Below, one piece after another: positions 7,532-28,355 of a stretch of 64,000 nucleotides of DNA. Location of the stretch: positions 1,206,252-1,270,251 of the forward strand of contig NZ_CP007287.1 of NCBI RefSeq assembly GCF_000737865.1, written 5' to 3'. Positions within the stretch are counted from its first letter, which is position 1. Each line of letters opens with the position of its first letter. The stretch comes from Bifidobacterium coryneforme. Its GTDB lineage: Bacteria; Actinomycetota; Actinomycetes; Actinomycetales; Bifidobacteriaceae. A program made the translations under genes and the position numbers. Under the pieces are notes generated by a model that was given only the letters and a program-made list of their open reading frames with translations, was not told the DNA's origin and did not search any database.

Positions 7532-8203
7532 CTACTTGAGTTTGGAATTGACGCTGTTTCGAATCTCCCGCAGCGCATACAGCGGGGTCTCCTCAAGGAC
7601 ACCGTTGCCGGGCCCGAACCAGATCTTATCGCTGATGTTCTGGGCATTGCCCAAGGCATCCAGTTTGTGCTTGATGTCCTGCAGAGCGTACTCCACGGTC
7701 GTGTTCATGCCGTCCCAGTTGATCGGATCAGTCTTCACTGGCATATCAATTTCTCCTTGTAAATCGTTGTTCCCCGTCCACCGCAGGTAGCAGTTCCACG
7801 GGAAGTTATAGTAATTGTTCACATTGGTTTCACCACCGGTCTGGTCGCCGGGGGCACCGGCGATACCGCCGGTCTCGCTGACGGAAGCCTGGGCGATTAG
7901 GCCCCCGCCGATGTACACGGCCACATGGTTGGCATCGTTGAGCAGGATGTCACCCGGATAGGGATTCCCGTCGTTTGACACCCTCGCCCAGCCGCGAGCG
8001 GTGAGGTTCGCACTCAAATTCCTGGTCGTATTGGCTGAACCGGTGTCGAAACCGGCCTCACGCAGACAGTGAATGACCAGGCTAGAGCAGTCACAGTTAC
8101 CGGCGGCGGGATCGAAATGCCACCGGTCGGACTGCGAATAGCCCATGTTGGCCTGCACGCACCAATATCTCATGCGCTCAATGAACTTTGAGACACTCGC
8201 CAC
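7532..8203 (-). CDS. Endolysin, phage peptidoglycan amidohydrolase (Amidase_5/NlpC-P60-like)
   Basis: Cell-wall hydrolase expected to cut peptidoglycan at the end of a lytic cycle. The N-terminal catalytic domain has NCDCSSLVIHCLREAGFDT, whose DCSS cysteine is the likely nucleophile, and NHVAVYIGGGLIAQA with the likely catalytic His. This resembles the phage amidohydrolase family PF05382. The C-terminal part (~155-223) is probably a wall-targeting or linker region. GTG at 8203 is chosen because GGAGGTGA lies 5 nt upstream; the ATG at 8218 overlaps that ribosome-binding site. Last gene of the late operon, separated by the holin from a second endolysin. Confidence 0.82.
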   Translation of the reverse strand: MASVSKFIERMRYWCVQANMGYSQSDRWHFDPAAGNCDCSSLVIHCLREAGFDTGSANTTRNLSANLTARGWARVSNDGNPYPGDILLNDANHVAVYIGGGLIAQASVSETGGIAGAPGDQTGGETNVNNYYNFPWNCYLRWTGNNDLQGEIDMPVKTDPINWDGMNTTVEYALQDIKHKLDALGNAQNISDKIWFGPGNGVLEETPLYALREIRNSVNSKLK

Positions 8204-8279
8204 CAGGATCACCTCCATTCATTGATTTCATTTATCCTCCTATTGTTTCCGCCCCCGGCCGGACGACCGAGGGCACAAT

Positions 8280-8564
8280 CTATCTGCCGGCCATCTGCCG
8301 GACACTGGCACCGGAATCCACCTCGGGTAGGCCGGCGATGCTGGTCAAAAGACTCATCATCGCGGACAGGGCAGCGGTGCCGGCCACCAGGGACCAGTCC
8401 ACCGTGCCGATGGTCGCGGCGCTGGCGGGTACAGCCGCCAAGGCCGCCTGGGCTGCGGTCTTGACCGCGCGTACGGCGGCGGCCTTGGCCCAGTTGGCGA
8501 GGCCTGACTGCGACCGGGGCGGGCAAGGAGTGGCGTGCCGGGGCATGGTCTCAGGGTCGGTCAT
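8280..8564 (-). CDS. Holin, phage r1t type
   Basis: A 94-residue membrane protein that should form the lysis pore. After a short polar N-terminus it has an amphipathic segment LANWAKAAAVRAVKTAAQAA, a first hydrophobic stretch and a second one (SLVAGTAALSAMMSLLTSIA). It ends GLPEVD, the pattern of r1t-family holins. It sits between two endolysin genes, 16 bp downstream of the amidase. Confidence 0.85.
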   Translation of the reverse strand: MTDPETMPRHATPCPPRSQSGLANWAKAAAVRAVKTAAQAALAAVPASAATIGTVDWSLVAGTAALSAMMSLLTSIAGLPEVDSGASVRQMAGR

Positions 8565-8580
8565 GAGTATCTCCTCTCAG

Positions 8581-9555
8581 TCAGAAGGGGTTGCCGTCAC
8601 TGATGGCGATCTGGAGGCGGTCCAGAGGTTCGCCGAACATGCCCGCGAAGGCATCCCCGCCATAGCTGGTGCCGTCGTCGCACACAGTGGGCAGCCATCC
8701 CTGACGGGCGGCGGTCTGACTGCGGTACCAGGCCTGGGCGAGGGTGCGCCCTGCCGGTGTCGTGTAGTGCAGCTGCACTGCGTCAATCACCTGTCCCGAC
8801 ACCCCCGCGCACCCGTTCACGGTGTCGTTGATGTCGGAGCGGTCCACCCAGTCGAGCCAGTCGCCGCCCAGCATGTGGACCCGGTAGCGCAGGTTGCCCT
8901 CATCCACGCGCACGGTCAGCAGGTCGTGGGCAGAGCAGGGCAGGCCAGCGAACCCCTCGTCGCCCGGCCCGTAGTCGGTCACCTCGTCGAGCCAGTCGCC
9001 GCCCTGCCGGCGCAGCCGGTAATGGACATGGGCGGCGAGGCCGGGCCGGACCTTGGCAGTACCCGCAGGGGCGGTGGCTGGCGGCGCATGTCCGGTGTCG
9101 GGCAGGCCCCGGGCAATCCGGTCGATTCTGGACAGGTCATAGGTGCCGGGGCACCGGGTATTGAACCAGCGACTGTGCGGGTACAGGGGCAGGTCCCCGT
9201 ACACGGCGCGCAGGTCCCGCACCAGTTCGGCGACCGTCCGGTAATCCCCGTCGCTCTGGCGGGGGTTGCACTCTATCGAGATGCTCGTGTCGTTGCCGCC
9301 CGACCCGACGCCCACGCCGTCCCCGCACGCCCAGGCGCGGTCACCCGGGGCAACGAGACAGGCCACACGCCCGTCCTCGACCACATAGTGGGCGGACGTG
9401 CCGCGCGCACCGGACGTGAACGTACGGATGACGCCATCGAAAGTGGGGCCGTCGCTCGGGTCGCCCCACCAGTGGATCGTGATGGATGTGATGCCATACG
9501 GCCTGCCGGGCGTGAAACAGGCGGCATTGTACTGGGTAATGTCCTGGTAGGACAT
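8581..9555 (-). CDS. Endolysin, N-acetylmuramoyl-L-alanine amidase with wall-binding repeats
   Basis: Zn-dependent amidase of the PGRP/Amidase_2 fold that cleaves between MurNAc and L-Ala. Residues ~1-170: SITIHWWGDPSDG (first Zn His), SAHYVVEDGRVACLV, SISIECNPRQ, and PHSRWFNTRCPG (second His and the Cys ligand). After a Pro/Ala linker come three related units with GGDWLDEV, GGDWLDWV and a final GEPLDRLQIAI, like the W-repeats used for cell-wall binding. ATG at 9555 follows GGAGG with 6 nt spacing; the open frame upstream is non-family. Confidence 0.88.
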   Translation of the reverse strand: MSYQDITQYNAACFTPGRPYGITSITIHWWGDPSDGPTFDGVIRTFTSGARGTSAHYVVEDGRVACLVAPGDRAWACGDGVGVGSGGNDTSISIECNPRQSDGDYRTVAELVRDLRAVYGDLPLYPHSRWFNTRCPGTYDLSRIDRIARGLPDTGHAPPATAPAGTAKVRPGLAAHVHYRLRRQGGDWLDEVTDYGPGDEGFAGLPCSAHDLLTVRVDEGNLRYRVHMLGGDWLDWVDRSDINDTVNGCAGVSGQVIDAVQLHYTTPAGRTLAQAWYRSQTAARQGWLPTVCDDGTSYGGDAFAGMFGEPLDRLQIAISDGNPF

Positions 9556-9625
9556 GGATACCTCCTCGCAGGAAAACGCCACCCAGGCGGGCGGCACGAA
9601 CAAAAACGGAACCGCGTGAACGCGG

Positions 9626-9787
9626 TCAGGCGGTAAGCAACATGAGCGCCAGGCAGAACGCCAGGAGCCGTCCCACACACCACGACAACGTCAGCCTGAC
9701 CGCCGCCACCACCACCGCACCGACCGCGACCACGGCCAGCAAGGTCAGGCAGAACAGAGCGACGGTCTTCAATCTCGGCAGCCGCAT
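9626..9787 (-). CDS. Small two-helix membrane protein of the lysis region
   Basis: A 53-residue ORF starting MRLPRLKTVALFCLT with GGAGG 4-5 nt upstream of the ATG. Two hydrophobic helices (VALFCLTLLAVVAVGAVVVA and VGRLLAFCLALMLLTA) flank a short polar turn. No family is recognised. Its position before the amidase and holin suggests an accessory lysis role such as an antiholin, but that is inference. Confidence 0.55.
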   Translation of the reverse strand: MRLPRLKTVALFCLTLLAVVAVGAVVVAAVRLTLSWCVGRLLAFCLALMLLTA

Positions 9788-9857
9788 ACGACCTCCTCTC
9801 AAAGGGATAAAAGAAAAGCCACCCGGACGGAGTGGCATGCATGGAGGAAGGGACTGG

Positions 9858-10175
9858 TCAGCCCACGGTTGACAGGACCTTAATCTCCTCATAGATCTTC
9901 GTGCCCGTCCCATTGCCGCCCAGGCTGTGGTACGCCTGGTAGATGCGCTCCACCTCCTCCATGGCCACCAGCGGGATACTGCCCAAGGGAACGTACCTGG
10001 CATGGATCTCCAGCAGTTCGGCACGTAGGAGTGTGCGTAGCCCGGCCTCCACGGCACGGTCCCGCTCCTCCTCCTTGCGGTGCCCGTTCAGCAGCCAGCC
10101 GCAGACACCGGTCAGGACGGGTATCAGCATGGGAGACACCAGGTTCTCCACCAGATCGATCAGCACTTCATTCAT
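9858..10175 (-). CDS. Small phage protein with N-terminal membrane helix
   Basis: 105 residues: a hydrophobic N-terminal segment (LVSPMLIPVLTGVCGWLLN) followed by a charged helical domain, LLRAELLEIHARYVPLG...VERIYQAYHSLGGNGTG. Proteins of this shape are common between tail-fibre and lysis genes of Gram-positive siphophages and are often listed as holin-like or of unknown function. It overlaps the stop of the preceding tail gene by 4 bp. Confidence 0.65.
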   Translation of the reverse strand: MNEVLIDLVENLVSPMLIPVLTGVCGWLLNGHRKEEERDRAVEAGLRTLLRAELLEIHARYVPLGSIPLVAMEEVERIYQAYHSLGGNGTGTKIYEEIKVLSTVG

Positions 10176-11698
10176 CGTGCCTCCGCCCAGAACATCTGGC
10201 CACTGAAGAAGTTGGCGGTCGTATTCGCGGTACCGATGCTGATGGTGCCTTGCGGCTGGCTCTCCCCTGGTCCGAACACATGGAAGCGGCCCATGGCGTA
10301 CGAGGTGCCGTAGGCCAGCACGTCCAGGCTGTGGTCGGGCATGATCGACGGGTCCAGGCGCACCACGGGGATGGTCTTCTGTGAGGGAACGACCCCTGTC
10401 CTCACCTTGATGTTCAGTTCCAGGAAGTACACCCCGGCCCTTTTGTACAGGCGGGTAGCGCCGTTATAGTCCTCGTAGTCCGCAGACCAGCCCAGGTAGG
10501 AGGAAGGGTTGTAGTCCTTGAACCCGGCAGGCAGTTCATTCACCGTCACTCTGGACGTATACATGTTGATGCTGCCCCCGGCGAGGTCCACTCTGCCCGC
10601 CACCATCGAGGCTGAGTCGCCTTCGCGGCTCGCTACAGCCGTGAACTGGGGCTGCTGCGGGCTGGTGCCCATCGACAGACGGTCGAACTCGTCCGAATGG
10701 GTCCCCCATATCAGCCAGTACGGGTGCGTCTTGTCGTCGCCGATGCCTTGCAGCCCGCCCGTCTTGGTGCCTTGGATCAGTGTCTGGCTCAGCTGTACAC
10801 GGTCCCCGCTCGAAGCAGTCTGCAACCCACCGACCGCATGCACGCCATCCCCGGTCGCCTTGAACAGAGTGTTACCGTCCTCGTCTTTGGCCCAGAAGCC
10901 CGACTTGTCGAAGCCCACCAGCCCATCAGCCGTGGTGAACGAGCCCGACCGGATGATACCCGCGCACAGCAGGCCGATGACCGCCGCATCCACCTGCACA
11001 TCGCGTGCGGACAGTTGGTCCAAGTACATGGCGACCGGAATCGGCTCCCACTCGGACCCGTCCCACCACCACTCGGCCACAAGGGCCGGCTTATCCCCCG
11101 TCCCGTACTGCATCCACAGATCACCGCGGTTCTTGCCCTCGCCTTGAGGCGGCGTCTCGCTCCTGGTGCGTTCGATGCCCAGACGCTCCGGGTCGATGTC
11201 GGCACCCGACACGACGACTTGTACGGGCGCGGTGGGTTCGCTGCCGTTGGGGGCGGGACTACCGTCCTCACCGTGCGCGTCATCCCATGCCACAGCGGAA
11301 ACCGAATGCGAAGACCCGACCTCGTATGGGCCCAGGGCCAGCGTGCCACGGGCCGTCATTCTGCCCGCCTCCACGTTATCCACCAGGACCTGCACATGGT
11401 CGAAATCGGCGGGAACGCCGCCCTCAAGGGTGCCGTCCCAGGACACCAGCACCATGCCCGCCGCCGATTCCACATCGATACCGGACGGAACCCCCGGGGC
11501 GGTCGTGTCCCCCACCCACTGCACGATGCCCTCGCTCCCCGCTGCGGGGCCTACCAAGGTCCGCGAACCATCAACGTTATGCCAGGCGGTGCTCGCCGAG
11601 AGGCTCGTCTGCTGATGGGACGAGGAGGTGAGCGCGTCGGTGGTAGCGGCCAGCACCTGTTCCATTGGGCTGAGTGTGAGGTTTGGGTGGTATACCAT
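10172..11698 (-). CDS. Putative tail-tip/receptor-binding protein
   Basis: 508-residue structural protein. N-terminal ~50 residues, then a fibronectin-III-like section around residues 65-150 (APGVPSGIDVESAAGMVLVS), a middle region repeated in many tail proteins (GDLWMQYGTGDKPALVAEWWW; VDAAVIGLLCAGIIRSGSFT), and a C-terminal beta-rich part with DFDRL-type loops that probably binds the host surface. Position after the Tal-like protein and before lysis genes supports a tail-fibre or receptor-binding role. Exact function is inference. Confidence 0.7.
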   Translation of the reverse strand: MVYHPNLTLSPMEQVLAATTDALTSSSHQQTSLSASTAWHNVDGSRTLVGPAAGSEGIVQWVGDTTAPGVPSGIDVESAAGMVLVSWDGTLEGGVPADFDHVQVLVDNVEAGRMTARGTLALGPYEVGSSHSVSAVAWDDAHGEDGSPAPNGSEPTAPVQVVVSGADIDPERLGIERTRSETPPQGEGKNRGDLWMQYGTGDKPALVAEWWWDGSEWEPIPVAMYLDQLSARDVQVDAAVIGLLCAGIIRSGSFTTADGLVGFDKSGFWAKDEDGNTLFKATGDGVHAVGGLQTASSGDRVQLSQTLIQGTKTGGLQGIGDDKTHPYWLIWGTHSDEFDRLSMGTSPQQPQFTAVASREGDSASMVAGRVDLAGGSINMYTSRVTVNELPAGFKDYNPSSYLGWSADYEDYNGATRLYKRAGVYFLELNIKVRTGVVPSQKTIPVVRLDPSIMPDHSLDVLAYGTSYAMGRFHVFGPGESQPQGTISIGTANTTANFFSGQMFWAEAR

Positions 11699-11707
11699 TC
11701 CTGTTCC

Positions 11708-12916
11708 TTACTGGATCGGGTTGTCCATGACATCGAAGGTGATTCGTGCCTTTGTGGTCTGATTGCCCGAGATCTTCATGATCGTTCCGGGGTAGTCGCC
11801 GTCCAGCAGACTCGGGAAGCCACCAATGTGGAGTGTGGTCGGCATTCCCGGGCGCAGAGTTGCGGGCGAGCAACGGATCCCGCCTGCGGCGGTGTCAGAG
11901 AAGTCGATGTCCGCCGATATCTGGATGAGTTTGCGCTTGTTCGCCGCAAGGCGTGACCGCACATGGTCCTTGAGCACGTCCACGTTCTCCGTGTCGGTGT
12001 CCGAGTATGCGCTTTCACGCAGTATCTGTGGGTCCATGCGGCTTACGACCTCGGCCATGTCCTCCGCATATGCGGTTATCGTCGCCTCATCGGTTCCCGC
12101 ACCGCTGGCGTACCACCTCTGAATCGGGGCGGCGTGGGACACCTGGAGGTCATTAAGATGGCCCGTGCCTGGATAGTAGGTCAGTTCGACGGGGGTTGCT
12201 CCGGCATAAAGTCCGAGGTCGGCGTCCGAGCCTGCCACGAACCTGACCCGGATGTGCTGCTGGTCCGATAGATAGGGTTCGAAGGCGAAATCGGGACCGT
12301 TGACGAGATTGGCTATGTCAGTCAGGAGCTTGTCTGCTTTGTTGTTCTGGACGTTCCATGCGTGGAGCGAGCTTTTCTCCCTGGTTCCCTTCTCGTTCGC
12401 GTACGGCCAGTCGATGGGGAGTTCACCGCCCTGTTTGCGGCTCGTAGCCAGCAGCCCGATGTCACTCATGATGGCCCGGTACGAGAGCCTGTTGTAACTT
12501 ACCGTGTCGGTGCTGTATCCGTCCTTGAACGTCCCCTCGCGTACCGCGATGCGCTCGGACAGCATGTCCAAAGGTGACTCAAGAGGGAAGCTGGTATCGG
12601 ACTGTCTGTCCTGGCGGGCCCCGATGACTCCCCATAGGACGGGATCGCCTATCCGGTCATCCGTGTCGTCATCCTTCCAGCACACGCACAGGGCCCGCCT
12701 GGTCGAGTCCAGCATCCGGTTCCGCCCGATGGGGTCGTCAGCCGGGACCGCCGTCCAGGGGACGGTGAGGTTACTGGCCGACCGGTCACCCATCTCCCTG
12801 GTCGACGTGTTGAAGCTCTGCTGCCGCCCACTGGACTCCCACTGGAAGCTGGGGATGTCGATGGGGCATACGATCCGTCCATCGCGGGCGTCGCAGATGT
12901 AGTGTCTCCAGCTCAC
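11708..12916 (-). CDS. Putative tail-associated (Tal/baseplate hub-like) protein
   Basis: About 402 residues starting at a GTG (12916) that overlaps the TGA of the upstream gene as GTGA; the longer open frame upstream is a shadow. Contents include FQWESSGRQQSFNTS, TVPWTAVPADDPIG and RALCVCWKDDDTDDRIGDPVLWG, then a long mixed domain. Such a protein directly after Dit and its neighbour normally forms the tail-tip hub. No catalytic motif is evident. Confidence 0.65.
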   Translation of the reverse strand: MSWRHYICDARDGRIVCPIDIPSFQWESSGRQQSFNTSTREMGDRSASNLTVPWTAVPADDPIGRNRMLDSTRRALCVCWKDDDTDDRIGDPVLWGVIGARQDRQSDTSFPLESPLDMLSERIAVREGTFKDGYSTDTVSYNRLSYRAIMSDIGLLATSRKQGGELPIDWPYANEKGTREKSSLHAWNVQNNKADKLLTDIANLVNGPDFAFEPYLSDQQHIRVRFVAGSDADLGLYAGATPVELTYYPGTGHLNDLQVSHAAPIQRWYASGAGTDEATITAYAEDMAEVVSRMDPQILRESAYSDTDTENVDVLKDHVRSRLAANKRKLIQISADIDFSDTAAGGIRCSPATLRPGMPTTLHIGGFPSLLDGDYPGTIMKISGNQTTKARITFDVMDNPIQ

Positions 12917-13776
12917 CTGGATACCCCCACATCGGTCACTTCGAGCGACCGGAACCCCCTCCACCACCAGCGCGGCCTGCTGACAGCAGGCTTGATGGCG
13001 ACATGCACCTTGTGCGTGTCCCCGCCCGCCAACGCCACCCGCCAGCGGCACGACTGGCGCGCCCAGGGTTCAAACACCGCGCATTCGTCCTTGCCGTCAC
13101 TGACCGGCTGATCGTCGACGTACAGGTTCGCAACGAACGAACCTATCCCGCCCGACGTGGACGCCCTGTAGGCCCACACCACGTCCACCAGGCGATCCGT
13201 GGAAAGCCGGCTTGTCGTCAGGGACAACTGGTGTTGCTCCATGCTGGCCCACTGCAGGCCGTCCGTGTCCGTCCGCTGTGCGTAGCCCAGCCTGCCCAGC
13301 GACCCTCCGTAGGGGATGGCGTACTCCATGCTCTGCGCATATGTGGCCGACATCGTGGAGGCCGCACCCGCTGGCATGACGAAGGACCGTAGCGGCAACG
13401 CACCTGACGGCAGGTCAGGCATCGGGGTTGATGCGGACGGTGTCCCTTCGGCCACGTGCAGGCTCACCTGGCCGCCAGCCTTGGTGTCCGCTAAAAGGTA
13501 GACGGTATCGATGCGTGGGTAGGCGCTGTCTCCCGCCGACACAGCCTCCTCAGTCGGCCCGCCAGGCCAGTACGCCTCCACAAACCCGTCCGCCAGGCCG
13601 TCGGAACATACAGCCACCCCGGAAGCCGCCTTGTACCGGAGTCCGGAGTCGCCGGACACCTCCAGCCCTTCGACCACGCCCGTATTTTCGTAGTGCGCCG
13701 CCAGGATGCGGCGGTGCGTCAACGCATCAAGTCCGTTGCCATCCACGTCCTGGGCAACACCCAAAGCCGTCACCAT
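12913..13776 (-). CDS. Phage tail-tip structural protein, function unassigned
   Basis: 287 residues. The N-terminus (MVTALGVAQDVDGNGLDALT) and an early beta-rich section containing YKAASGVAVCSDGLADG and YPRIDTVYLLADTKAG resemble the N-terminal part of phage baseplate upper or receptor-binding proteins. It lies between Dit and the Tal-like protein and overlaps the latter by 4 bp, so it is probably part of the tail tip. Confidence 0.65.
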   Translation of the reverse strand: MVTALGVAQDVDGNGLDALTHRRILAAHYENTGVVEGLEVSGDSGLRYKAASGVAVCSDGLADGFVEAYWPGGPTEEAVSAGDSAYPRIDTVYLLADTKAGGQVSLHVAEGTPSASTPMPDLPSGALPLRSFVMPAGAASTMSATYAQSMEYAIPYGGSLGRLGYAQRTDTDGLQWASMEQHQLSLTTSRLSTDRLVDVVWAYRASTSGGIGSFVANLYVDDQPVSDGKDECAVFEPWARQSCRWRVALAGGDTHKVHVAIKPAVSRPRWWWRGFRSLEVTDVGVSR

Positions 13777-13809
13777 AAGAACCTCCTCTATATGTATTTC
13801 GCTTGCCTG

Positions 13810-14682
13810 TCAGATGTAGGTGTCGCACGTAAGCACGTCCACCCAGCCGCCGCCTGCACTCAGCAGACGAAGCATGATGTCACCGCCCGGCTCGATTTGG
13901 GGGAAACCGCGCCGCACCAGTCCCCTGCTGACATCCACACCGCCCATCATGGCGGTCTGCGAACGGCAGTCCAGAACCAGAGGCACACCTGGGCTCACGC
14001 GCCCCCTCCACTCAAGGCCGCCGCCCTTGCCCCACATGAACAGGAGACCATCGGGCCAGTCACCGTTGGCCGTCAGCACCGGGTAGGCGCAGGTGGTGCC
14101 CGCGTTGCGCAACAGAAGCCTGCTCTGGTCGGCAGACTGCACCCCGTAATCCAGCGGGTACGCAAGTCCACGCCCCCCATCGCCGTACGACAGCCCGCCA
14201 GGGGTGGCCTCAGGGGCGACGATCTGTCCAGTTTGCGCCTCCCAAGCCAGACGTTCAGGTCTCGGACACACAAAGGTGAGCGTGCCTGAAAGCAGCTGAC
14301 GGCTCCAGTCCGACCCGTACTCCGAGCGCAGATAGCACTCGACATACGTGTCCTCGCCCTCGTCAGCCACTCGCAGTCGTAGCATTCGACCGCTCATGGA
14401 GTTCACCTGCCGCGCCAGGGCCTGCAGCTCGGAACGGAGGGTGCCTACAAGGTCGATGTGGATGGTAACGGTGCGCGCGGAATACGAGATACCGTCCGCG
14501 GGGACATCGTGTGCGCCGTTGCCCCATGCTCGTTCCACCAGCTCGGTCTTGATCGGAGGAGTGGACAGCCACCCCTCGATGCCTTCCTTGGCGATCATCA
14601 CGCCGCGCCCATCCGGGGGCCGGGACCGGCCCCCATGGAATCGCACCGTACGGTCACCGTCGTAGAGATACGCGTCAGCCAT
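13810..14682 (-). CDS. Distal tail protein (Dit-like)
   Basis: Expected to form the ring joining tail tube and tip. About 290 residues: an N-terminal domain with GIEGWLSTPPIKTELVERAWG, GISYSARTVTIHIDL and ALARQVNSMSGRMLRLRV typical of siphovirus Dit, then a galectin-like C-terminal domain. Two adjacent ATGs (14685, 14682) exist; the second has AAGGAG 6 nt upstream and overlaps the tape-measure stop as TGATG. Confidence 0.8.
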   Translation of the reverse strand: MADAYLYDGDRTVRFHGGRSRPPDGRGVMIAKEGIEGWLSTPPIKTELVERAWGNGAHDVPADGISYSARTVTIHIDLVGTLRSELQALARQVNSMSGRMLRLRVADEGEDTYVECYLRSEYGSDWSRQLLSGTLTFVCPRPERLAWEAQTGQIVAPEATPGGLSYGDGGRGLAYPLDYGVQSADQSRLLLRNAGTTCAYPVLTANGDWPDGLLFMWGKGGGLEWRGRVSPGVPLVLDCRSQTAMMGGVDVSRGLVRRGFPQIEPGGDIMLRLLSAGGGWVDVLTCDTYI

Positions 14683-18564: not shown

Positions 18565-18578
18565 CCTGGCGACGAAAG

Positions 18579-19929: not shown

Positions 19930-19984
19930 GGCCGGGCAAGAATGATGCCCACAGGGGAAAGGTAGGAAAGCCTGCGGGCAAGTT

Positions 19985-20287
19985 TTATGAGGCTGGCTGG
20001 CATTCGGCGTCGCTCAGCCGCCAGCCGTTATTCAGGAGTTCGAACAGCGTGGGGACCCAGGGGATGTACCCATAGCGGAATGATGTGGTCAGGTGGTCAT
20101 GCGTAGGCTGTCCTGCCGCCCCGGTCTCTGGGTCGTCATGGGCTTTGCACAGCTTGATGCTCGCGTCTTGCTTCCAGTGGGGCAAACGGGCGGCGACAAC
20201 CTCGCGATGTTCCTTGGGGCACTCGAGCGATTGGTTGACTCCAGCAGTAATAGCCCTTTGTAACCGGTTTGAAGAGGTGCTGCTCAT
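19985..20287 (-). CDS. Hypothetical protein in the head-module gap
   Basis: 100 residues from ATG 20287: MSSTSSNRLQRAITAGVNQS, then a middle containing HWKQDASIKLCKAHDDPETG and a C-terminus with YIPWVPTLFELLNNGWRLSD. Composition is protein-like but no family is recognised and there is no clear ribosome-binding site. It is downstream of a terminator (20364-20403) and may be a cargo ORF or a relic. Confidence 0.4.
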   Translation of the reverse strand: MSSTSSNRLQRAITAGVNQSLECPKEHREVVAARLPHWKQDASIKLCKAHDDPETGAAGQPTHDHLTTSFRYGYIPWVPTLFELLNNGWRLSDAECQPAS

Positions 20288-21207: not shown

Positions 21208-21494
21208 AACTTGGGTCCTTCCTTCTTGATGTTCGACTCCCAGGAGATGGTGACGTGCATGGCATTGATGACGGCTTGCCTGTACCTGTACCTGCGGGTG
21301 ATGTCATGGTCGGAGGCCGTTTCGTGGATACCGGCCAGGGATTTGGTTTGATGGGATGCGTAGCTCAAACTTCCTCCCGGATAGTCCCCGTACGTGCTTT
21401 TACATCCCTTACTCGTCCGTTCCTCATCCCACCCGCACCCGGGTTTTGCCGGACACTCAGAGGGTTCTTTTTTGCGGTTCGTATGGTTGCTCAC
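21204..21494 (-). CDS. Hypothetical small phage protein
   Basis: 96 residues, MSNHTNRKKEPSECPAKPGC at the start. Polar throughout, with no recognisable domain. It overlaps both neighbours by 4 bp, which supports translation as part of the early operon. Confidence 0.55.
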   Translation of the reverse strand: MSNHTNRKKEPSECPAKPGCGWDEERTSKGCKSTYGDYPGGSLSYASHQTKSLAGIHETASDHDITRRYRYRQAVINAMHVTISWESNIKKEGPKF

Positions 21495-21736
21495 TTTGTG
21501 CCTCCTATCATGCTGCTGAGGTCTTCGGCACCAAGCCGCTCAACCCCACCGCCGATAAAGTGGCCCGTTAGGCGGGGTTTTGGTTCTGGCTTGGGCGGTT
21601 CAATGACCAGCTGGGCGGCTTTCATGGCCTTGACGCGAGCCTCCTCGATTGGGGCCCCCTGGCGAGTCTGGGCTATAAGGGTCCGCCTGTATGGGATTGA
21701 CCGGGGACTGCTGATGCCGATGCCGTCCTGCTCCAT
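21491..21736 (-). CDS. Hypothetical small phage protein
   Basis: 81 residues from ATG 21736 (MEQDGIGISSPRSIPYRRTL...), with a Pro/Lys/Glu-rich middle and a GHFIGGGVERLGAEDLSSMI tail. Starts 4 bp after the previous stop and overlaps the next gene by 4 bp. The longer open frame upstream lies over the previous gene and is rejected. No family is recognised. Confidence 0.55.
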   Translation of the reverse strand: MEQDGIGISSPRSIPYRRTLIAQTRQGAPIEEARVKAMKAAQLVIEPPKPEPKPRLTGHFIGGGVERLGAEDLSSMIGGTK

Positions 21737-21740
21737 GAAC

Positions 21741-21998
21741 TCATGGGATTCGTACCGCGTCGGGTATTCGAGGGCCTTGGATGCGGCGGATGCCTGCGTT
21801 GACGTCCCCGCTGAGCATCCACCGGCCCGTCTCGTTGTTCGCGTAGAAACGTCTGACGGATTCCATCGCATCGGCCAGGTTCGCGTCGGCCCGAAGCTCC
21901 TCATGAAAGGTGCGCGCCTCCAGGTCGGTGATGGGTGCGTTGCCGTGGTGCGCCCGGATCTTGGCAAGCACGAGGGTGCTTTCAGCGAGGGTTAGCAT
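21741..21998 (-). CDS. Putative helicase-loader-type protein (G39P-like)
   Basis: 85 residues from ATG 21998 (AAAGGAG about 8 nt upstream). Helical throughout: LAESTLVLAKIRAHHGNAP, TFHEELRADANLADAMESVR and WMLSGDVNAGIRRI. Small helical proteins with this pattern follow the replisome organiser in many phages and load the host helicase (compare SPP1 G39P). The role is inferred from shape and position. It overlaps the replisome-organiser gene by 7 bp. Confidence 0.5.
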   Translation of the reverse strand: MLTLAESTLVLAKIRAHHGNAPITDLEARTFHEELRADANLADAMESVRRFYANNETGRWMLSGDVNAGIRRIQGPRIPDAVRIP

Positions 21999-22852
21999 GC
22001 GGGTATCTCCTTTCTCGGGATCTGCGGAATTTCCTCTTGCACATACCGGGCTATGAGGGCGGCGTTCGCATCCTGGTTCTGCTGAGCCCTGCTCGCCTGC
22101 CGGTCCGGCTGCCTGGCCCGCGGTTTGGGCTTGTTCTTCCAGCCGCCATCGTGGAGCCATTTGGATGCGGCGGGAATGTACCGGGGGTCCCGTTGTTCGT
22201 CCCGGAGCATCTGGGCTCCCTGAAGCAGGGCGACGAGGTTCACGCGTTCCGTCCCGGTCCGGCGCAGGACGCGTTTGAACTCGCGGACGGCGGCATCAGG
22301 GTAGTCGTGGTTCGGGTAGAGCGACCAGAACTGTCGGAACTGGGCCGCCTCATCCGACGACGGCTCCCTGACGGGCTGCCGGTCGGCGTCGGCCCCCGTT
22401 GGGGGGTTGGGGGATTTATTGTCGGGTAAATGTTCTTGTGTTCTGGTGTTTTTGTGTTTAGTCCGGTTCAACTCGGATTCATCACGATGAGTCGCTGTTG
22501 AATCTCTGTTGAATCTGCGCTTTCGATAGTTTTCTGCGTTCCTTTCCCTGCTTTTCTCCACCTGGTCACGCCTGCTGTTGTGCTCCGTGTAGTCATGGAT
22601 CACGTACCCACTGTTGCCGTCCGGCTCCAACAACTCGACCTTGCACAGCGCGTTGATCTCCTCATCGGTGACCCCGAGCACATAACGAAGGTCACGATCG
22701 GGGATGCGACCGTCTGTCAGATTGTCCGAGCAGTAGGCGATGGCGAACACGAACGCCCCCACCGCAGATGGGCAGACGACACGTAGCTCCTTGACCTTCC
22801 CGTTCAGGTAGAAGTCGTTCTTCAGCTTCGCGTAACCGCGTCTACCGGCCAT
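21992..22852 (-). CDS. Phage replisome organiser / DnaD-like replication protein
   Basis: 286 residues. N-terminal winged-helix region (MAGRRGYAKLKNDFYLNGKV, then VGAFVFAIAYCSDNLTDGRI), a charged linker around 100-165, and a C-terminal helical domain (FRQFWSLYPNHDYPDAAVRE...AASKWLHDGGWKN), the usual layout of phage initiators that bind the origin and recruit the helicase loader. AAAGGAGG lies 7 nt before ATG 22852. A phage origin may lie within or beside this gene. Confidence 0.72.
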   Translation of the reverse strand: MAGRRGYAKLKNDFYLNGKVKELRVVCPSAVGAFVFAIAYCSDNLTDGRIPDRDLRYVLGVTDEEINALCKVELLEPDGNSGYVIHDYTEHNSRRDQVEKSRERNAENYRKRRFNRDSTATHRDESELNRTKHKNTRTQEHLPDNKSPNPPTGADADRQPVREPSSDEAAQFRQFWSLYPNHDYPDAAVREFKRVLRRTGTERVNLVALLQGAQMLRDEQRDPRYIPAASKWLHDGGWKNKPKPRARQPDRQASRAQQNQDANAALIARYVQEEIPQIPRKEIPAC

Positions 22853-22948
22853 GACAGCCCTCCTTTCTTTCTTCCTTCCTCATTGGCATCCGCATAACTT
22901 GGACTGTCCGCCCGTCAGGTTCCGCCCGGCCTTGGTGCCGATCTGCCC

Positions 22949-23371
22949 TCAATCGCACCGGCATACTCGCATGATGTCGGCCCCGCGCCGTCCCGCATAG
23001 CCGAGCATGGTCAGCATCCCGAGCCGCCAGTCCCTGGGAACCTCGATACGGCGCACGTACCCGGGGAACAGGACCCCGTCCCCTGGAAAGTCGCATGCAG
23101 TTCTGCTCGTCCTCGGCAGGCTGGCACCCCCGTGCCTGAGGGCGGACCTCGACCTCATAGCCCTTGCTCCGCGCCAGGCGGTGCGCCATAGCCTCCTCGC
23201 CTTCCGGAAAGGCGGAAGACCACCATTCTGTGGTCGGCCAGTGAGAACCGGTCGGCATTCCTGTTGTAGGGTCTTCCGGCGGATCATGCCCTCGGGGTCG
23301 CTTATACGGTCACGCAGGTACCGCAAGACGGCGGTCTCGAACCTCGTACCCTTGTCCTTTCTTCCGTCTGC
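22949..23371 (-). pseudogene. Frameshifted early-region ORF
   Basis: No single frame covers this stretch. One frame has KDKGTRFETAVLRYLRDRIS with no start codon after a TAA. A second has GEEAMAHRLARSKGYEVEVR. A third ends with VLFPGYVRRIEVPRDWRLGM. The opening GTRFETAV-type segment resembles the start of phage PD-(D/E)XK resolvase-like proteins, but the rest cannot be aligned to them. One or two genes inactivated by frameshifts is the simplest reading. Confidence 0.35.
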
Positions 23372-23515
23372 TTATGCGTACGCCTCCCAGGACGGCCACC
23401 CGCAGCCCAAGCAGCGGCCCACCATGCCGACCGCGCCACCGCACTCGGGGCACACGCGGTCAGGCTCGGGCGGCGTCTCAACCCCGGCGAACGGATCAAA
23501 ACTCAGGTTCGTCAT
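23372..23515 (-). CDS. Small zinc-ribbon protein
   Basis: 47 residues beginning MTNLSFDPFAGVETPP with CPEC and CLGC motifs 10 residues apart and ending WPSWEAYA. Two CxxC knuckles suggest one bound zinc. The start overlaps the last 20 bp of ssb (translational coupling). No specific function is known. Confidence 0.55.
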   Translation of the reverse strand: MTNLSFDPFAGVETPPEPDRVCPECGGAVGMVGRCLGCGWPSWEAYA

Positions 23516-24050
23516 TGCCGCCCCCTACCCACGGGTCCTGTTCCGGCGCACCTGTTTGTCCACCTGCCGGTCCCGGTGCGCACGAGGCCGATGACGCGGG
23601 AATCGGGGACGCTCCCCCACCCCACGAGAACTGCTCGCCGAACCCAGCACCGCCGCCCGAATTGCCGCCACTATTATTGTTCCGAGTCACCTGGGCGGTG
23701 CTCCGAGTCAGGGCCGGGCCAATCTCGTCCAGGCACAGCTCCACGAACATACGGTTGTTGCCATTGCGGTCCTGGTAGGAGCGCTGCACCAGACGGCCCT
23801 GGGCAATCACCCTCATGCCCTTGGTCAGGCTCGCCTGCATGTTCGAGGCCAGGGGCTGGTGCTGCGTATCCCATGCCGAGCAACGCATGAACAGAGCATC
23901 CCCGTCCTCCCACTGACCCGACGTCCTGTTGAACTGCCTGGGCGTGGAGACGATGGTGACATTCGCCACTCTGCCCCCGTTCGACGTCGACCGAATCTTA
24001 GGGGCCGCCGTCAGGTTGCCGATGATGGTAATGATGGCGTCTCCGGCCAC
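23496..24050 (-). CDS. ssb: Phage single-stranded DNA-binding protein
   Basis: 184 residues. OB-fold start DAIITIIGNLTAAPKIR with GGRVANVTIVSTPRQF, then FMRCSAWDTQ, GMRVIAQGRLVQRSYQDRNG and FVELCLDEIGP, as in bacterial SSB. A Gly/Asn/Pro-rich tail ends DEPEF rather than the usual DDDIPF, though still acidic with a terminal Phe. GTG start at 24050 with GGAGG upstream inside the preceding gene's 3' end. Works with the ERF annealing protein and nuclease encoded upstream. Confidence 0.92.
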   Translation of the reverse strand: MAGDAIITIIGNLTAAPKIRSTSNGGRVANVTIVSTPRQFNRTSGQWEDGDALFMRCSAWDTQHQPLASNMQASLTKGMRVIAQGRLVQRSYQDRNGNNRMFVELCLDEIGPALTRSTAQVTRNNNSGGNSGGGAGFGEQFSWGGGASPIPASSASCAPGPAGGQTGAPEQDPWVGGGNDEPEF

Positions 24051-24051
24051 G

Positions 24052-24264
24052 TCAGGCCTCCTTCTTGAAGTCGTCGATTACAATCGGGTTGTCCTCGCTC
24101 CGGTAACGGCGAGTGACAGGATGTGAACGCTCGGCTTCCCAGTTGCATGTATAGCCATGCCAGATGGTCTTGGCACACGACGGAGACCAGCACTTGCAGC
24201 ACTCGCCCTGGGTGAGCCGGGAACAAGTCGAACAAGGACAGCCGGCCCTGGTTGATAGCGTCAT
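24052..24264 (-). CDS. Cysteine-rich small phage protein
   Basis: 70 residues with eight cysteines between residues 9 and 40 (GCPCSTCSRLTQGECCKCWS, then PSC and YTC). Likely a compact metal-binding module, family unknown. It overlaps the upstream ORF by 4 bp (ATGA) and stops 1 bp before ssb, so it belongs to the coupled early operon. Confidence 0.6.
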   Translation of the reverse strand: MTLSTRAGCPCSTCSRLTQGECCKCWSPSCAKTIWHGYTCNWEAERSHPVTRRYRSEDNPIVIDDFKKEA

Positions 24265-24542
24265 GAGTCGGCATCCTCTCGATGCTCCGGGCAGCAGTAG
24301 AGCCGGTCCAACACATCTCCCCTCTGCCAGCCGTACTTGACGATTCCCAGGTCGAAAGCGGTTTCCGCGTCGTCGACTCCGCACACCAGCTGGTGCAATT
24401 CGGAGCGAAAACGGGTGCCGTCGATTACGTGCCCGTCCCTGTAGATGGAGATAAATCTGATGCAGTTGGGCACATCGCAGTCGAACCGCCACCCGTCCTC
24501 GGGGACGTGCACCGTATAGCCATGCACCTTGAGCTTGCTCAT
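24261..24542 (-). CDS. Hypothetical phage protein
   Basis: 93 residues: MSKLKVHGYTVHVPEDGWRF then CDVPNCIRFISIYRDGHVIDG and a C-terminal YCCPEHREDADS. No family is recognised. It overlaps both neighbours by 4 bp. Confidence 0.6.
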   Translation of the reverse strand: MSKLKVHGYTVHVPEDGWRFDCDVPNCIRFISIYRDGHVIDGTRFRSELHQLVCGVDDAETAFDLGIVKYGWQRGDVLDRLYCCPEHREDADS

Positions 24543-24700
24543 GAGCGCTCACCCCTTTCCATGCACCAGCCGAACCCTGCCAGGGCGGCCAGGTCAAGCA
24601 GACCAAGCTGAGGGTGTGCGAGCGTCCAGCAGGAAGCGAACACGCACACCGCGCCGCAGAAACCGGCGGCGCACAGCCAGAGGAAATCAACGAGAGGCAT
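24539..24700 (-). CDS. Small two-helix membrane protein
   Basis: 53 residues from MPLVDFLWLCAAGFCG, with two hydrophobic stretches separated by a short turn and a polar tail WCMERGERS. The ATG at 24700 (or 24703) lies inside the 3' end of the ERF gene. Function unknown. Confidence 0.5.
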   Translation of the reverse strand: MPLVDFLWLCAAGFCGAVCVFASCWTLAHPQLGLLDLAALAGFGWCMERGERS

Positions 24701-25361
24701 CATCGGAATCACCCACCTTGCCGAGTTCATCAAGTATCCTGTCCGCCTCGGCGGGCGTCAGATTCGCGGAGCCCAGGTTGCCCGTGATCTGCCTGCCGAT
24801 CAGGCGGCTCACCGTCTCCTTCTGCTCGGCTGGCACGTTCACCCCCGCCGCCACCAAGGCCGCGCGGATACGCGTCAGGGACGACTCCGGGGCCGAAGCG
24901 AACCGCTGCCTGCTCACGAACCCCCGCTGCTGGCGCTCCTCCTCCCGGGCCGCCGCCTGCTCCGAGCCGCCCTCGTCACCCGAAGCCAGGTTGAAGGCAC
25001 TCGTGATCGCGTACCGCTTGCAGCTGGTCCAAGTGCCCGCGTCCTTCTTCACATCCTTCCCCGTCAACACGCAGGGGTAGTCGAGCAGATCCTCGGCCTG
25101 GCCCGTCTTCACGTCCACGACCCGGACGCGCACCGCGTTATTCGCCAGGTGCGTGGACAGCCACAGGTCCTGCTTCGCCAGGGCGTCGGTGACAGCCTTG
25201 TACAGGTCGTCGATCGTCGAGTACCTGATCCGGTTGCCGCTGATGGTCAGCTGGCCGGACTGTTCCGGTTTCATCTCCATGCGCGCCTTCTGCAGGCGCT
25301 CCCACACCGTCAGCTCCTGCTCAGCCTGCTCCTGCTTTGTCTTGTTTTCCTGACCGCTCAT
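24687..25361 (-). CDS. ERF-family single-strand annealing recombinase
   Basis: Phage recombinase that anneals complementary single strands, normally acting with an exonuclease. 224 residues. The core has YSTIDDLYKAVTDALAKQDL, LLDYPCVLTG, and the signature CKRYAITSAFNLASGDEG, typical of ERF-superfamily proteins. A C-terminal helical region from ~165 is variable. Its start overlaps the nuclease gene stop by 4 bp, so the two form a recombination pair. Confidence 0.8.
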   Translation of the reverse strand: MSGQENKTKQEQAEQELTVWERLQKARMEMKPEQSGQLTISGNRIRYSTIDDLYKAVTDALAKQDLWLSTHLANNAVRVRVVDVKTGQAEDLLDYPCVLTGKDVKKDAGTWTSCKRYAITSAFNLASGDEGGSEQAAAREEERQQRGFVSRQRFASAPESSLTRIRAALVAAGVNVPAEQKETVSRLIGRQITGNLGSANLTPAEADRILDELGKVGDSDDASR

Positions 25362-26194
25362 ACTTCCATCTCCTCGTACTCTCTGTCGATCCGCCAGCCG
25401 GGGAACCCCACCGTGCGGGGAGTCTTGTCCAGCCCGTACTCCCCCATGCGCTGCTTCCAGTCGTCCGGACTGTCACGCCTGAACCCGGCCAGCTCATCCA
25501 ACGCCTGCGCGATACGCTCACCGGCCAGCACGGTCTCCGGGCCATCCTCGTCCATCCGCCACACCATGTAGTCGTAAGGACGCTTCTTCTCCTGCACCAC
25601 GAACTCGAACCCGAGCAGGCCCTGGAAACCGGTCAGCCGGTACAGCATCATGTAGAAGGCCGCCTGGATGTGGTAGCCGAAACGGGCCGCCTCGCCGGGG
25701 AACTCCCTCGGGTCCGCGCTCGTAGTCTTGTAATCACGGATACGCAGCACCCCGTCCTCGTCCGGACCGTCAGGCAGCCAGTCGAACTTGCCCTTCAACC
25801 GCAGCCCACTCCCCGGGTCGTCCGCGACCACCACCATCTCCGGCCTGCCGGGAAGCGACCTGAAATACGGGGCCGAAACAGCCCCCATCTTCCGCAGACG
25901 CTCCCTGTCACCGGAGGAGACAACCACCGCGTCCGAAGCGCGCAGCTCCTCCATCAGGGCCTTGCCCGCCTTCGTACGCAGATTCGGCCTGTCGACGACC
26001 TCCGCACCAGTGCCCAGCACCCGCGCATGCGCCGCCTTGCCGAAATCCAGAGCATCACCGGACACATCCAGACCATGATCGAGATAATCCACATACGACA
26101 ACGGCGACACCATGAATCGCTTCAACGCAGACTGATCCAACGCCGGGTCAGCGAAGTACTCCCGATCCGCCATCTCCTTAATCTCAAACCCCAT
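25358..26194 (-). CDS. PD-(D/E)XK nuclease-like protein
   Basis: 278 residues. After YFADPALDQSALKRFMVSPL and LDFGKAAHARVLGTG come the active-site strands KGKFDWLPDGPDEDGVLRIR and DYKTT (D-x(n)-DYK), then FGYHIQAAFYMMLYRLTGFQ with the QxxxY helix. This matches RecB/Cas4-like and RecE-type phage exonucleases. It should resect ends for the downstream ERF protein. Starts as TGATG with the small ORF before it. Confidence 0.82.
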   Translation of the reverse strand: MGFEIKEMADREYFADPALDQSALKRFMVSPLSYVDYLDHGLDVSGDALDFGKAAHARVLGTGAEVVDRPNLRTKAGKALMEELRASDAVVVSSGDRERLRKMGAVSAPYFRSLPGRPEMVVVADDPGSGLRLKGKFDWLPDGPDEDGVLRIRDYKTTSADPREFPGEAARFGYHIQAAFYMMLYRLTGFQGLLGFEFVVQEKKRPYDYMVWRMDEDGPETVLAGERIAQALDELAGFRRDSPDDWKQRMGEYGLDKTPRTVGFPGWRIDREYEEMEV

Positions 26195-26304
26195 CAGTTG
26201 TCCCCTTCAATTCGGCCTTCAATCACGGTGTCGCTGTCAAACCTGGCGCGGACATGCATGCCCGTTATTTCCCCCGGGTCCAAGCGGTCAAATAGAACAC
26301 TCAT
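26194..26304 (-). CDS. Very small early-operon ORF
   Basis: 36 residues, MSVLFDRLDPGEITGMHVRA then RFDSDTVIEGRIEGDN. It overlaps the upstream gene by 4 bp and the nuclease start by 1 bp (TGATG). The coupling at both ends is the main support; no function is suggested. Confidence 0.5.
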   Translation of the reverse strand: MSVLFDRLDPGEITGMHVRARFDSDTVIEGRIEGDN

Positions 26305-26627
26305 TTCCTGTTTCCTTCACGATTGTTTTGTTTGATTCCCTTGACTTGCGCCTGCTCCTCAACGTGCGGTGACGATGACGACGACCGGCATTCACAGCAT
26401 TGACAGCATTCACGCGAATTCGCGACCAACACCCACCGCGACAACCGCTCCACCTTGTCCGCCGCATCATCAAGCACCCTGTCCGCCTCGTCAAGATCGG
26501 ACGGTCTGCAATAGTTCCGTTTCCCCAGACGAATCACATGGTCACCGCAGAGCGTTTTGAACGTACGCTCCGGTATCCCGCCCACATACTCACGGGCCTC
26601 CTCCTCACACAGCAATGCCCTGCTCAT
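26301..26627 (-). CDS. Excisionase-like small DNA-binding protein
   Basis: 108 residues. N-terminal EEEAREYVGGIPERTFKTLC and VIRLGKRNYCRPSDLDEADR resemble the winged MerR/excisionase HTH, with the RxYCRPSDLDEA tail after the wing. The C-terminal half carries an odd cysteine cluster (RECCQCCECR) and a Ser run. If it is an excisionase its integrase partner is missing. The regulator/excisionase call is moderate. Confidence 0.55.
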   Translation of the reverse strand: MSRALLCEEEAREYVGGIPERTFKTLCGDHVIRLGKRNYCRPSDLDEADRVLDDAADKVERLSRWVLVANSRECCQCCECRSSSSSPHVEEQAQVKGIKQNNREGNRK

Positions 26628-26989
26628 ACCGCCATCCCCACATCCGAGAGACGGTACCGGGAGCAGGCGTGCCCGCTGGGACTGATGCCCTCACGGTCCG
26701 CGCACAAGACCAGGCCCTTACGCACGAGCTCTGGAAGACGACTACGAACCGTGCTGTCCGCCAGCCTGCGCCCCAACTGCTGCTCCACCTCAGCCTCAAC
26801 CTCCCACTGCGTGAAAGGCCCCGGTCTTTCAGAACACAGGCGAGACAAAGCCTGCAGGGTAAGAGCCTGCATATGACCAGTCCTCACCTCAGCCGCAGCC
26901 GCAAACGACGTCTCAGGATTACCCCTTCGCGTCGGAGCGGTTGATACACTGAAATCCGACATTGATTGCTTACCTACTTTCTTTGTCAT
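26624..26989 (-). CDS. Winged-helix phage protein
   Basis: 121 residues. LQALSRLCSERPGPFTQWEV followed by LADSTVRSRLPELVRKGLVL looks like a winged helix-turn-helix used for DNA binding. It overlaps both neighbours by 4 bp and is an early regulator candidate. The start may be the second Met (MSDFSVST). Confidence 0.6.
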   Translation of the reverse strand: MTKKVGKQSMSDFSVSTAPTRRGNPETSFAAAAEVRTGHMQALTLQALSRLCSERPGPFTQWEVEAEVEQQLGRRLADSTVRSRLPELVRKGLVLCADREGISPSGHACSRYRLSDVGMAV

Positions 26990-27156: not shown

Positions 27157-27157
27157 C

Positions 27158-27430
27158 TCACGCCACCAGACTGCTGTCAGACAAATCTTGCTTACGCATG
27201 GCAGCATCGAACTCAGCTGATTTGATCAAGTCGTTAAAGGTGATACCCAGCCATTCAGCCACCTGATTCAGATCCTCGGTCGAAAATGGCTTTTGAAACC
27301 TGAACCGCTCGTATACGTATTTCGGGTCCCTGCCCAGTGCCTTTGCCACGTCCTTACCGCTATATCCGCAACGGGCCGCTTCCGCCCTCACTGCCCGGAT
27401 CACCCGAGTGGAGGATTGCTTGAGTCTCAT
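27158..27430 (-). CDS. Cro-like/XRE helix-turn-helix regulator
   Basis: About 90 residues from MRLKQSSTRVIRAVRAEAAR. HTH region: YSGKDVAKALGRDPKYVYER, then FSTEDLNQVAEWLGITFNDL. First gene of the leftward early operon, divergent from the repressor at 27527, so it is in the position of Cro. A GTG at 27439 is an alternative start. The operator-like repeats lie right at its start. Confidence 0.75.
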   Translation of the reverse strand: MRLKQSSTRVIRAVRAEAARCGYSGKDVAKALGRDPKYVYERFRFQKPFSTEDLNQVAEWLGITFNDLIKSAEFDAAMRKQDLSDSSLVA

Positions 27431-27433
27431 TTT

Positions 27434-27505
27434 TGGCACATCCTGATAGTGCCATATTTGGGACTATCTGTCAACCAAGAACGGTACTTATTGCAAAAAG
27501 TGCCA
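27434..27505. promoter_or_regulatory. Operator region of the lysogeny switch
   Basis: Between the divergent HTH genes an inverted repeat TGGCAC-N9-GTGCCA (27434-27454) is followed by another half-site GTGCCA at 27500-27505, flanked by A/T runs. Such sites between cro and cI bind the repressors and control both promoters. Which protein binds is not known. Confidence 0.6.
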
Positions 27506-27526
27506 AAATTGACTACTATGAGGAAC

Positions 27527-27913
27527 ATGAAAGAGATAGACGCATTCACTGACCAGGCGATCAAAACGATTGAGTCCACCAGGCAGGAAGTGGGCATGAC
27601 GACTCAGGAACTCATCCAACGTTCCGGAATCAGACGATCCACGTTCTTCAGAAAGATGCGCGGGGATACCAGCTTCACCACCGAGGACATCGATGCGCTG
27701 GCCAGAGCCATGGGAGTCGACCCATTCCTTATCCTCAGCGACGCGGCCGAAAGAGCCGATGCAACCAAAAGAACCGACATGGATCTCTCCTGGCTCCCCG
27801 AGGAGGAGAAGGTGGCCTACGTGCTCGGCAAGGTCAAGGCAGACGACCAGGCGTTGGCGGCCATGAACGACCCGAACAAGGAGAAGGAAGCAGAAGGCGG
27901 CGATGGCAGATAA
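27527..27913 (+). CDS. CI-like repressor, XRE family
   Basis: 128 residues from MKEIDAFTDQAIKTIESTRQ. HTH: MTTQELIQRSGIRRSTFFRK followed by FTTEDIDALARAMGVDPFLI. The C-terminal part is a short acidic helix region rather than a peptidase domain, so inactivation probably depends on the ImmA-like protease just downstream. An alternative ATG is at 27518. Overlaps the protease gene by 11 bp. Confidence 0.78.
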   Translation: MKEIDAFTDQAIKTIESTRQEVGMTTQELIQRSGIRRSTFFRKMRGDTSFTTEDIDALARAMGVDPFLILSDAAERADATKRTDMDLSWLPEEEKVAYVLGKVKADDQALAAMNDPNKEKEAEGGDGR

Positions 27914-28355
27914 GGGCCCGAGGCTCCTGGACGGCCTGACGTCGACGATGACATACGGGCAGATGCGCTGCTACACCGACACCCTGGACGTCACCATCAG
28001 CAGCGCACTCCTGCCGGAAGGCATGACCGGCTTCTACGATGAAGCCACCAGAACCATCCTCATCGACCGTAGGCTTACTTACTGCCAGAAGCGCTGCACA
28101 CTCGTCCATGAACTCATCCATTGGCAGCATGCCGACACCACCCGCTCAGGCGTGTACGGGTCGCGCATAGAGAACCGAGCACGTCGAGAGACCGCACTCA
28201 AGCTCGTGGATCCAATCGAGTACCAGACCGCCGAAACCATCTACGAGGGGGACTCTTACCAAATTGCCTGCGAACTTGACGTGACCCTCCAGATTATTCA
28301 GGACTACCAACGGATACTCGACACAAACCACTCGCGCTACAACGCAACACGTTAA
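27903..28355 (+). CDS. ImmA/IrrE-like metallopeptidase
   Basis: 150 residues with the zinc-binding HELIH motif at ~69-73 (CTLVHELIHWQHAD) and a downstream acidic helix. Such proteases cleave the neighbouring phage repressor to start induction. The gene overlaps the repressor, a standard repressor-antirepressor pair as in ICEBs1 and many Gram-positive phages. Confidence 0.82.
   Translation: MADKGPRLLDGLTSTMTYGQMRCYTDTLDVTISSALLPEGMTGFYDEATRTILIDRRLTYCQKRCTLVHELIHWQHADTTRSGVYGSRIENRARRETALKLVDPIEYQTAETIYEGDSYQIACELDVTLQIIQDYQRILDTNHSRYNATR

What the first reader, a model, noticed from the sequence alone, without database searches (positions are those of the whole stretch)
7532..28355. Tail-and-lysis prophage without a head module: tailocin-like relic
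Seen: an intact order of major tail protein, two chaperones, tape measure, Dit, Tal-like, fibre, amidase, holin and second endolysin, plus replication and repressor genes. Not seen: terminase, portal, protease, capsid or integrase. Headless flexible-tail particles (F-type tailocins) in Listeria and Pseudomonas have this late-gene content. If the late genes are expressed, the strain might release contractionless tails that attack relatives. Retained early genes argue for recent decay instead.
Basis: partly seen in the sequence, partly recalled or inferred. Interest (0 to 1): 0.7.

Follow-up and report, generated by a model that had tools for sequence, protein, structure and literature searches.

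The report
Headless prophage relic, not a tailocin
A virus dormant in the chromosome of a bifidobacterium has lost its head genes and the gene that caps its tail, and two sister strains have lost the tail genes too, so it looks like an ordinary decaying relic rather than a weapon.

Summary
The observation largely holds: tail, lysis and early genes are present and open, and no head gene was found in the complete genome. Three results weigh against a tailocin. (1) The head was cut out at w~19,690-19,894. The scar keeps a short piece resembling large terminase and the C-terminus of the tail terminator gene with an in-frame stop, so the module lacks its own terminator; in siphophage TP901-1 that loss gives polytails. 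(2) The only other same-species genome held (Bifidobacterium indicum LMG 11587) and a third strain, itself found by searching for the scar, share the scar and have both also deleted the tail module, with different breakpoints; 11 of 14 lysis and early frames tested are open in all three. Open tail frames in the window strain do not require selection: its branch is short (P of no damage about 0.05-0.13, rough). Low pN/pS of shared genes cannot be credited to domestication, because synonymous divergence exceeds that of the scar. Best reading: a grounded siphoprophage in stepwise decay. Retained early genes alone do not exclude a tailocin, since rhizoviticin keeps them.

The parts
7532..8218 (-). 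NlpC/P60-ELLD type cell-wall hydrolase (second endolysin)
   Evidence: PF25309 above cut-off, phrog_14030
8581..9564 (-). Amidase_2 endolysin (start chosen by eye)
   Evidence: PF01510, phrog_3393/4018
9629..9787 (-). short hydrophobic frame of about 53 aa, possible holin
   Evidence: read from sequence; no family tested
9858..10175 (-). holin-like small protein conserved in related prophages
   Evidence: phrog_4105, unknown function; 66-70% identity in G001, G018, G010, G025, BigBern1
10172..11698 (-). tail fibre; G014 keeps 54 bp of it, L067 its 3' 1.1 kb
11708..12967 (-). Tal-like minor tail protein (start uncertain)
   Evidence: phrog_1885; 59% identity to G018
12913..13776 (-). structural/baseplate protein
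   Evidence: phrog_3398; 60% identity to G001 over 287 of 287 residues
13810..14685 (-). Dit-like distal tail protein
   Evidence: phrog_5577, phrog_33; 69% identity to G001
14682..18191 (-). tape measure protein, 1169 aa from ATG 18191
   Evidence: phrog_5493; start chosen
18214..18609 (-). second chaperone frame (gpT-like), reached by a -1 shift
   Evidence: no family scan; no XXXYYYZ heptamer found
18579..18962 (-). tail assembly chaperone gpG
   Evidence: phrog_18582
18987..19610 (-). major tail protein
   Evidence: phrog_10909; 40% identity to G001
19690..19830 (-). scar part 3: C-terminus of the tail terminator gene with in-frame TGA at 19765-19767
   Evidence: 12/23 and 14/23 identities to intact G001 terminator P0003; same bases in the other two strains
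19830..19892 (-). scar part 2: about 21 codons resembling the VLMDELREQ stretch of large terminase (recalled to be its Walker B motif)
   Evidence: 0 of 100 shuffles scored as high; short, protein E values weak (1.6e-4 to 0.9)
19893..20188 (-). scar part 1: sequence that in G018 lies upstream of the terminase
   Evidence: 71% identity to G018 L024:10660-10960; 79% to BigBern1 over 94 bases
20449..26989 (-). early genes: phrog_908 protein, replication initiation, SSB, Erf, exonuclease VIII, phrog_1123 protein
27158..28355 (.). immunity region: repressor 27158-27439 (-), HTH regulator ~27377-27913 (+), metallo-protease-like 27903-28355 (+)
33132..33861 (-). degenerate prophage integrase in pieces, without match to the C-terminal ~120 residues
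   Evidence: 5 of 5 integrases taken beside related prophages match here, best E from 2.9e-12 (G026) to 3.8e-6 (G025, an incomplete query); frames

Best explanation
This is a grounded (defective) siphovirus-type prophage of a bifidobacterium in stepwise decay. Deletions, probably two, removed the head and packaging module together with most of the tail terminator gene in an ancestor of at least three strains; the integrase also decayed. In two of those strains the tail module was then deleted as well. The window strain still carries open tail, lysis and early frames, most simply because its separate history is short. If the late operon is still induced, I expect lysis with no phage and at most unterminated tail tubes. 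Shown here: scar, its presence in three strains, the deletions, the integrase pieces. Inferred: order of events, absence of function, outcome of induction.
For: No head gene in G000 (seven searches) or G014 (the last six). G001 rings in 71-73, G018 in 108-110, G010 in 109. Relatives carry terminase, portal and capsid and/or protease between tail and early genes (G001; G018, G010). Scar anatomy. The scar is in G014, the one other same-species genome of 27 in the genus search, and in L067, which was found by the scar itself. Tail module lost in G014 (w10226-19740) and L067 (w11270-19610). Integrase pieces. TP901-1 terminator stop mutant: capsids with long polytails (PMC4493119, passages).
Against: The eight tail frames of the window strain hold no internal stop. 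P of this under neutrality is 0.05-0.13 at a branch of 0.5% (scar and non-coding sites) but 0.0003-0.004 if the prophage-wide 1.36% is used. Shared genes show pooled pN/pS 0.17-0.18 between window and G014, which could mean selection after head loss; but pS is about 5.9% against 1.9% in scar plus non-coding sites, so much of that divergence was probably imported by recombination. The terminase piece is short; if it is wrong, one deletion would explain the scar. The two tail deletions may be nested in one lineage.
Confidence: 0.85

Rival explanations
1. A young F-type tailocin: the window strain induces the late operon, builds flexible tails, lyses and kills relatives.
For: Open tail and lysis frames. 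Rhizoviticin shows that a headless prophage with replication genes and an integrase remnant can be a working tailocin.
Against: The terminator gene is destroyed. In rhizoviticin the deletion of 22970, a DUF3168 protein (recalled to be the tail terminator/completion family), abolished activity. Two sister strains lost the tail. In the genus search the major tail protein was found in 2 of 27 genomes, the window's and G001, whose copy sits beside head genes.
Confidence: 0.07
2. A domesticated lysis or early cassette: the host keeps lysins and early genes for a use of its own, such as autolysis, while the tail is dispensable.
For: 11 of 14 lysis and early frames tested are open in all three strains; amidase pN/pS 0.16-0.23, phrog_908 gene 0.09-0.19.
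Against: Synonymous divergence is patchy (dS 0 to 0.185) and larger than in the scar, so the signal may date from functional phages. The NlpC lysin has a different 3' part in L067; the small gene beside the scar stops early in L067, and 26301-26627 is out of frame in both sisters. No use is shown.
Confidence: 0.12
3. The head genes lie elsewhere in the genome, or their absence is an assembly error.
For: The genome holds a second phage remnant at G000:C1 ~1,086.5-1,091 kb. Two of the Pfam searches missed the G018 head type, so a further unknown head type cannot be excluded.
Against: Seven searches for head genes were negative in G000. Three IMG/VR records carry the same scar 24-mer, one being another record of the window sequence at 99.99%.
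Confidence: 0.02

Closest known systems
Defective or 'grounded' prophages (Bobay et al. 2014, recalled; seen only as a reference in PMC12090994)
   Same: Immobile, integrase broken, head lost, remaining genes largely open with low pN/pS
   Different: Here the deletion scar can be read and further loss of the tail is seen in sister strains
Rhizoviticin, F-type tailocin of Allorhizobium vitis (PMC10811719)
   Same: Headless siphophage-like locus near a tRNA gene, with tail, lysis and replication genes and an integrase remnant
   Different: Rhizoviticin needs its DUF3168 gene, and similar loci were found in eight strains; here the terminator is destroyed and the tail is gone in two of three strains
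Monocin (ftb cluster) of Listeria (PMC7076858, passages) and F-pyocin of Pseudomonas (recalled)
   Same: Flexible-tail gene set plus lysis genes
   Different: Those are known bacteriocins; their terminator content was not checked here
Bifidobacterium phage BigBern1 (MT006237.1) and prophages of G001, G018, G010 in the same genus
   Same: Homologous tail and early genes
   Different: The three prophages have head genes; BigBern1's were not examined

Membership tests
F-type tailocin | no head or packaging genes | tested here: met
F-type tailocin | complete non-contractile tail set including a terminator | tested here: not met
   terminator reduced to a C-terminal piece with an in-frame stop; whether F-pyocin and monocin have a terminator was not checked
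F-type tailocin | lysis genes for release | tested here: met
   holin identity uncertain
F-type tailocin | headless tail locus kept across strains | tested here: not met
   tail kept in 1 of 3 distinct strains seen with the scar; small sample
F-type tailocin | tail particles that kill related strains | not testable with these tools
   needs induction, microscopy and a killing assay
Defective prophage | related prophages exist with the missing module in place | tested here: met
   G001; G018, G010
Defective prophage | remnants of deleted genes at the breakpoint | tested here: met
   terminator piece; terminase piece weaker
Defective prophage | integrase absent or broken | tested here: met

The most novel reading that the evidence does not exclude
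The window strain still makes tails without a terminator, and such unterminated tubes, released by the intact lysis genes, act on sister strains that have already lost the tail module: a tailocin caught at its birth or failure.
Probability: 0.06. Interest if true: 0.6.

Novelty: new member of a known kind. Interest (0 to 1): 0.22.

Why it matters
It gives a readable series of prophage decay within close strains: head lost first, then the tail, with most lysis and early genes still open. It also suggests a cheap check for tailocin claims: does the tail terminator survive at the scar, and do sister strains with the same scar keep the tail?

Tried and rejected
Tailocin and domesticated-cassette readings: see rivals. 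The neutral-decay test on the tail frames was inconclusive; one search used wrong frames for two genes and was redone. It assumes indel/substitution ratios of 0.02 and 0.043, 80% of indels shifting the frame. Reading low pN/pS as proof of selection was rejected because pS exceeds the divergence of the scar. The count for w20288-20448 depends on the alignment: 3 changes, 5. Of three chromosomal frames the synonymous counts were 0, 2 and 9 and the first had 13 non-synonymous, so that control says little. Search for an attachment-site copy of the tRNA-His 3' end: best match 30 bases at 86.7%, E 0.006, at offset 28307 of the piece searched; left open. The gpG/gpT fold showed nothing special (z -1.37). 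The pooled L067 figures (0.37, 0.40) include the NlpC gene, whose 3' part is not homologous there, and are not used as evidence.

Full report
What is there. The window is G000:C1:1206252-1270251 of a one-contig genome of 1,755,151 bases. A same-species genome, G014, has the length of NZ_CP006018.1, Bifidobacterium indicum LMG 11587 (1,734,546 bases), and I take them to be the same; that the window is B. coryneforme is recalled, not shown. Late genes lie on the minus strand from w19,610 down to w7,532, early genes from w20,449 to w26,989, and an immunity region reaches w28,355. Dit, fibre and baseplate protein are nearest to G001 (69%, 63% over 377 of 508 residues, 60%), the recombination genes to BigBern1 (79%), and the repressor to G018 (89%): an ordinary mosaic siphophage.

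Head genes. PF03354, portal PF04860, the G001 terminase, capsid PF05065, the G018 terminase, phrog_9 and phrog_104 gave 0 matches in G000; all but one search were also run on G014, with 0 matches. G001 rang, G018 in 108-110 and G010 in 109. G018, which has head genes, was missed; that is why the last three were run. In G001 the major tail protein is followed upstream by terminator, neck, head closure, adaptor, capsid, protease, portal and terminase.

The scar. Between the major tail protein and the phrog_908 gene the window has 0.8 kb. From w20,188 to about w19,893 it matches sequence upstream of the G018 terminase (71%) and, over 94 bases, BigBern1 (79%). From about w19,892 to w19,830 one frame reads ALLDELREQ, against VLMDELREQ in the terminases of G001 and L046, with 86-90% DNA identity over 29-35 bases (E 2e-4 to 7e-4). 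By protein the match is weak: E 1.6e-4 for a short query, 0.018 to 0.92 for the longer one. Its best score against ten relative loci, 26.6 bits, was reached by 0 of 100 shuffles, maximum 23.9; the place of that best hit was not printed. From there to w19,690 the frame matches the C-terminus of the G001 tail terminator, 12/23 and 14/23 identities on either side of an in-frame TGA; the scar piece as a whole scores 52.8 bits against at most 25.8 in 100 shuffles. So the head was cut out, probably in two steps, and the tail terminator went with it.

Sister strains. G014 joins w10,225 to w19,741: no tail module, same scar. A scar 24-mer matched three IMG/VR contigs, which therefore carry the scar by construction: L068 is the window sequence again (99.99%), L069 is identical to LMG 11587 (100% over 13,548 bases), and L067 is a third strain about 97% identical. 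L067 joins w11,269 to w19,611, so its tail module is gone too, with other breakpoints. The stop in the terminator piece is in all three. G014 and L067 share a right end without w28,863-34,284 and with the same ~226 bases in its place, so they may form one lineage and the larger G014 deletion may extend the L067 one; two independent losses are not proven. IMG/VR searches with major tail protein, Dit and Tal-like protein, which reach close relatives only, found this tail in no other strain: besides the window sequence they gave a 69% relative for Dit, on the contig that carries G001's terminase, and one 38% match for Tal.

Other ends. Integrases lie beside five related prophages; 5 of 5 match broken pieces at w33,132-33,861, in different frames, beyond an IetAS-type defence pair at w29,338-32,681. 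The three PF00589 matches of G000 lie at 651, 659 and 829 kb, far from the window. tRNA-His at w5,565-5,640 is an inferred insertion site; no convincing second copy was found.

Is the tail under selection? The eight tail frames hold no internal stop. By the three-strain comparison the window branch has about 2 changes in 377 scar and non-coding sites (my arithmetic), 0.5%, a very small count. At that length the chance of no disabling change in 9,441 coding bases is 0.05-0.13; at 1.36%, half the window-G014 prophage divergence (299 of 10,960 sites), it is 0.0003-0.004. Shared genes show pooled pN/pS 0.17-0.18, window against G014, but pS is 111/1870, about 5.9%, against 7/375, 1.9%, in scar plus non-coding sites, and dS runs from 0 to 0.185 between genes. 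That fits recombination, so the low ratio may predate the head loss. Of 14 frames tested, 11 are open in all three strains; the NlpC lysin has another 3' part in L067, the small gene beside the scar stops early in L067, and 26301-26627 is out of frame in both sisters.

Function. In TP901-1 a stop in the tail terminator gave capsids with long polytails (PMC4493119, passages). In rhizoviticin the deletion of 22970 (DUF3168) abolished killing, and five Region B genes were also needed (PMC10811719, sections 17 and 21). That DUF3168 is the terminator family is recalled; G001's terminator has no Pfam match and is named by phrog_6485 and phrog_123. A working tailocin is therefore unlikely but not excluded.

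Literature. A survey of honey bee gut prophages found no intact prophage in one B. indicum and two B. coryneforme isolates (PMC10259446, passages). A search for 'tailocin' with 'Bifidobacterium' gave 14 papers, 12 listed; no listed title or start of abstract reports one in the genus. I claim nothing wider.

Noticed in passing
window 29338-32681: AAA ATPase and subtilase pair matching PADLOC IetA/IetS, between the immunity region and the broken integrase; absent from G014 and L067 at this place. Relatives of the subtilase occur in 12 phage records.
   Followed up: partly
window 6163-7413: AbiH-family protein beside the lysis end of the prophage; pieces 71-81% identical in DNA lie in the second remnant of the same genome.
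   Followed up: no
G000:C1 ~1086500-1091200 (L018): Second phage remnant with a piece of exonuclease VIII 82% identical to the window's over 113 residues.
   Followed up: partly
window 21747: One-base difference (GGG against GG) from the IMG/VR record of the same sequence, inside an early ORF; variant or sequencing error.
   Followed up: no
L016:16098-17222 (G014): G014 has an extra ~1.5 kb with a DNA methyltransferase-like gene between w23124 and w23252.
   Followed up: no
window 18560-18640: gpG/gpT overlap needs a -1 shift but shows no XXXYYYZ slippery heptamer; fold unremarkable.
   Followed up: partly
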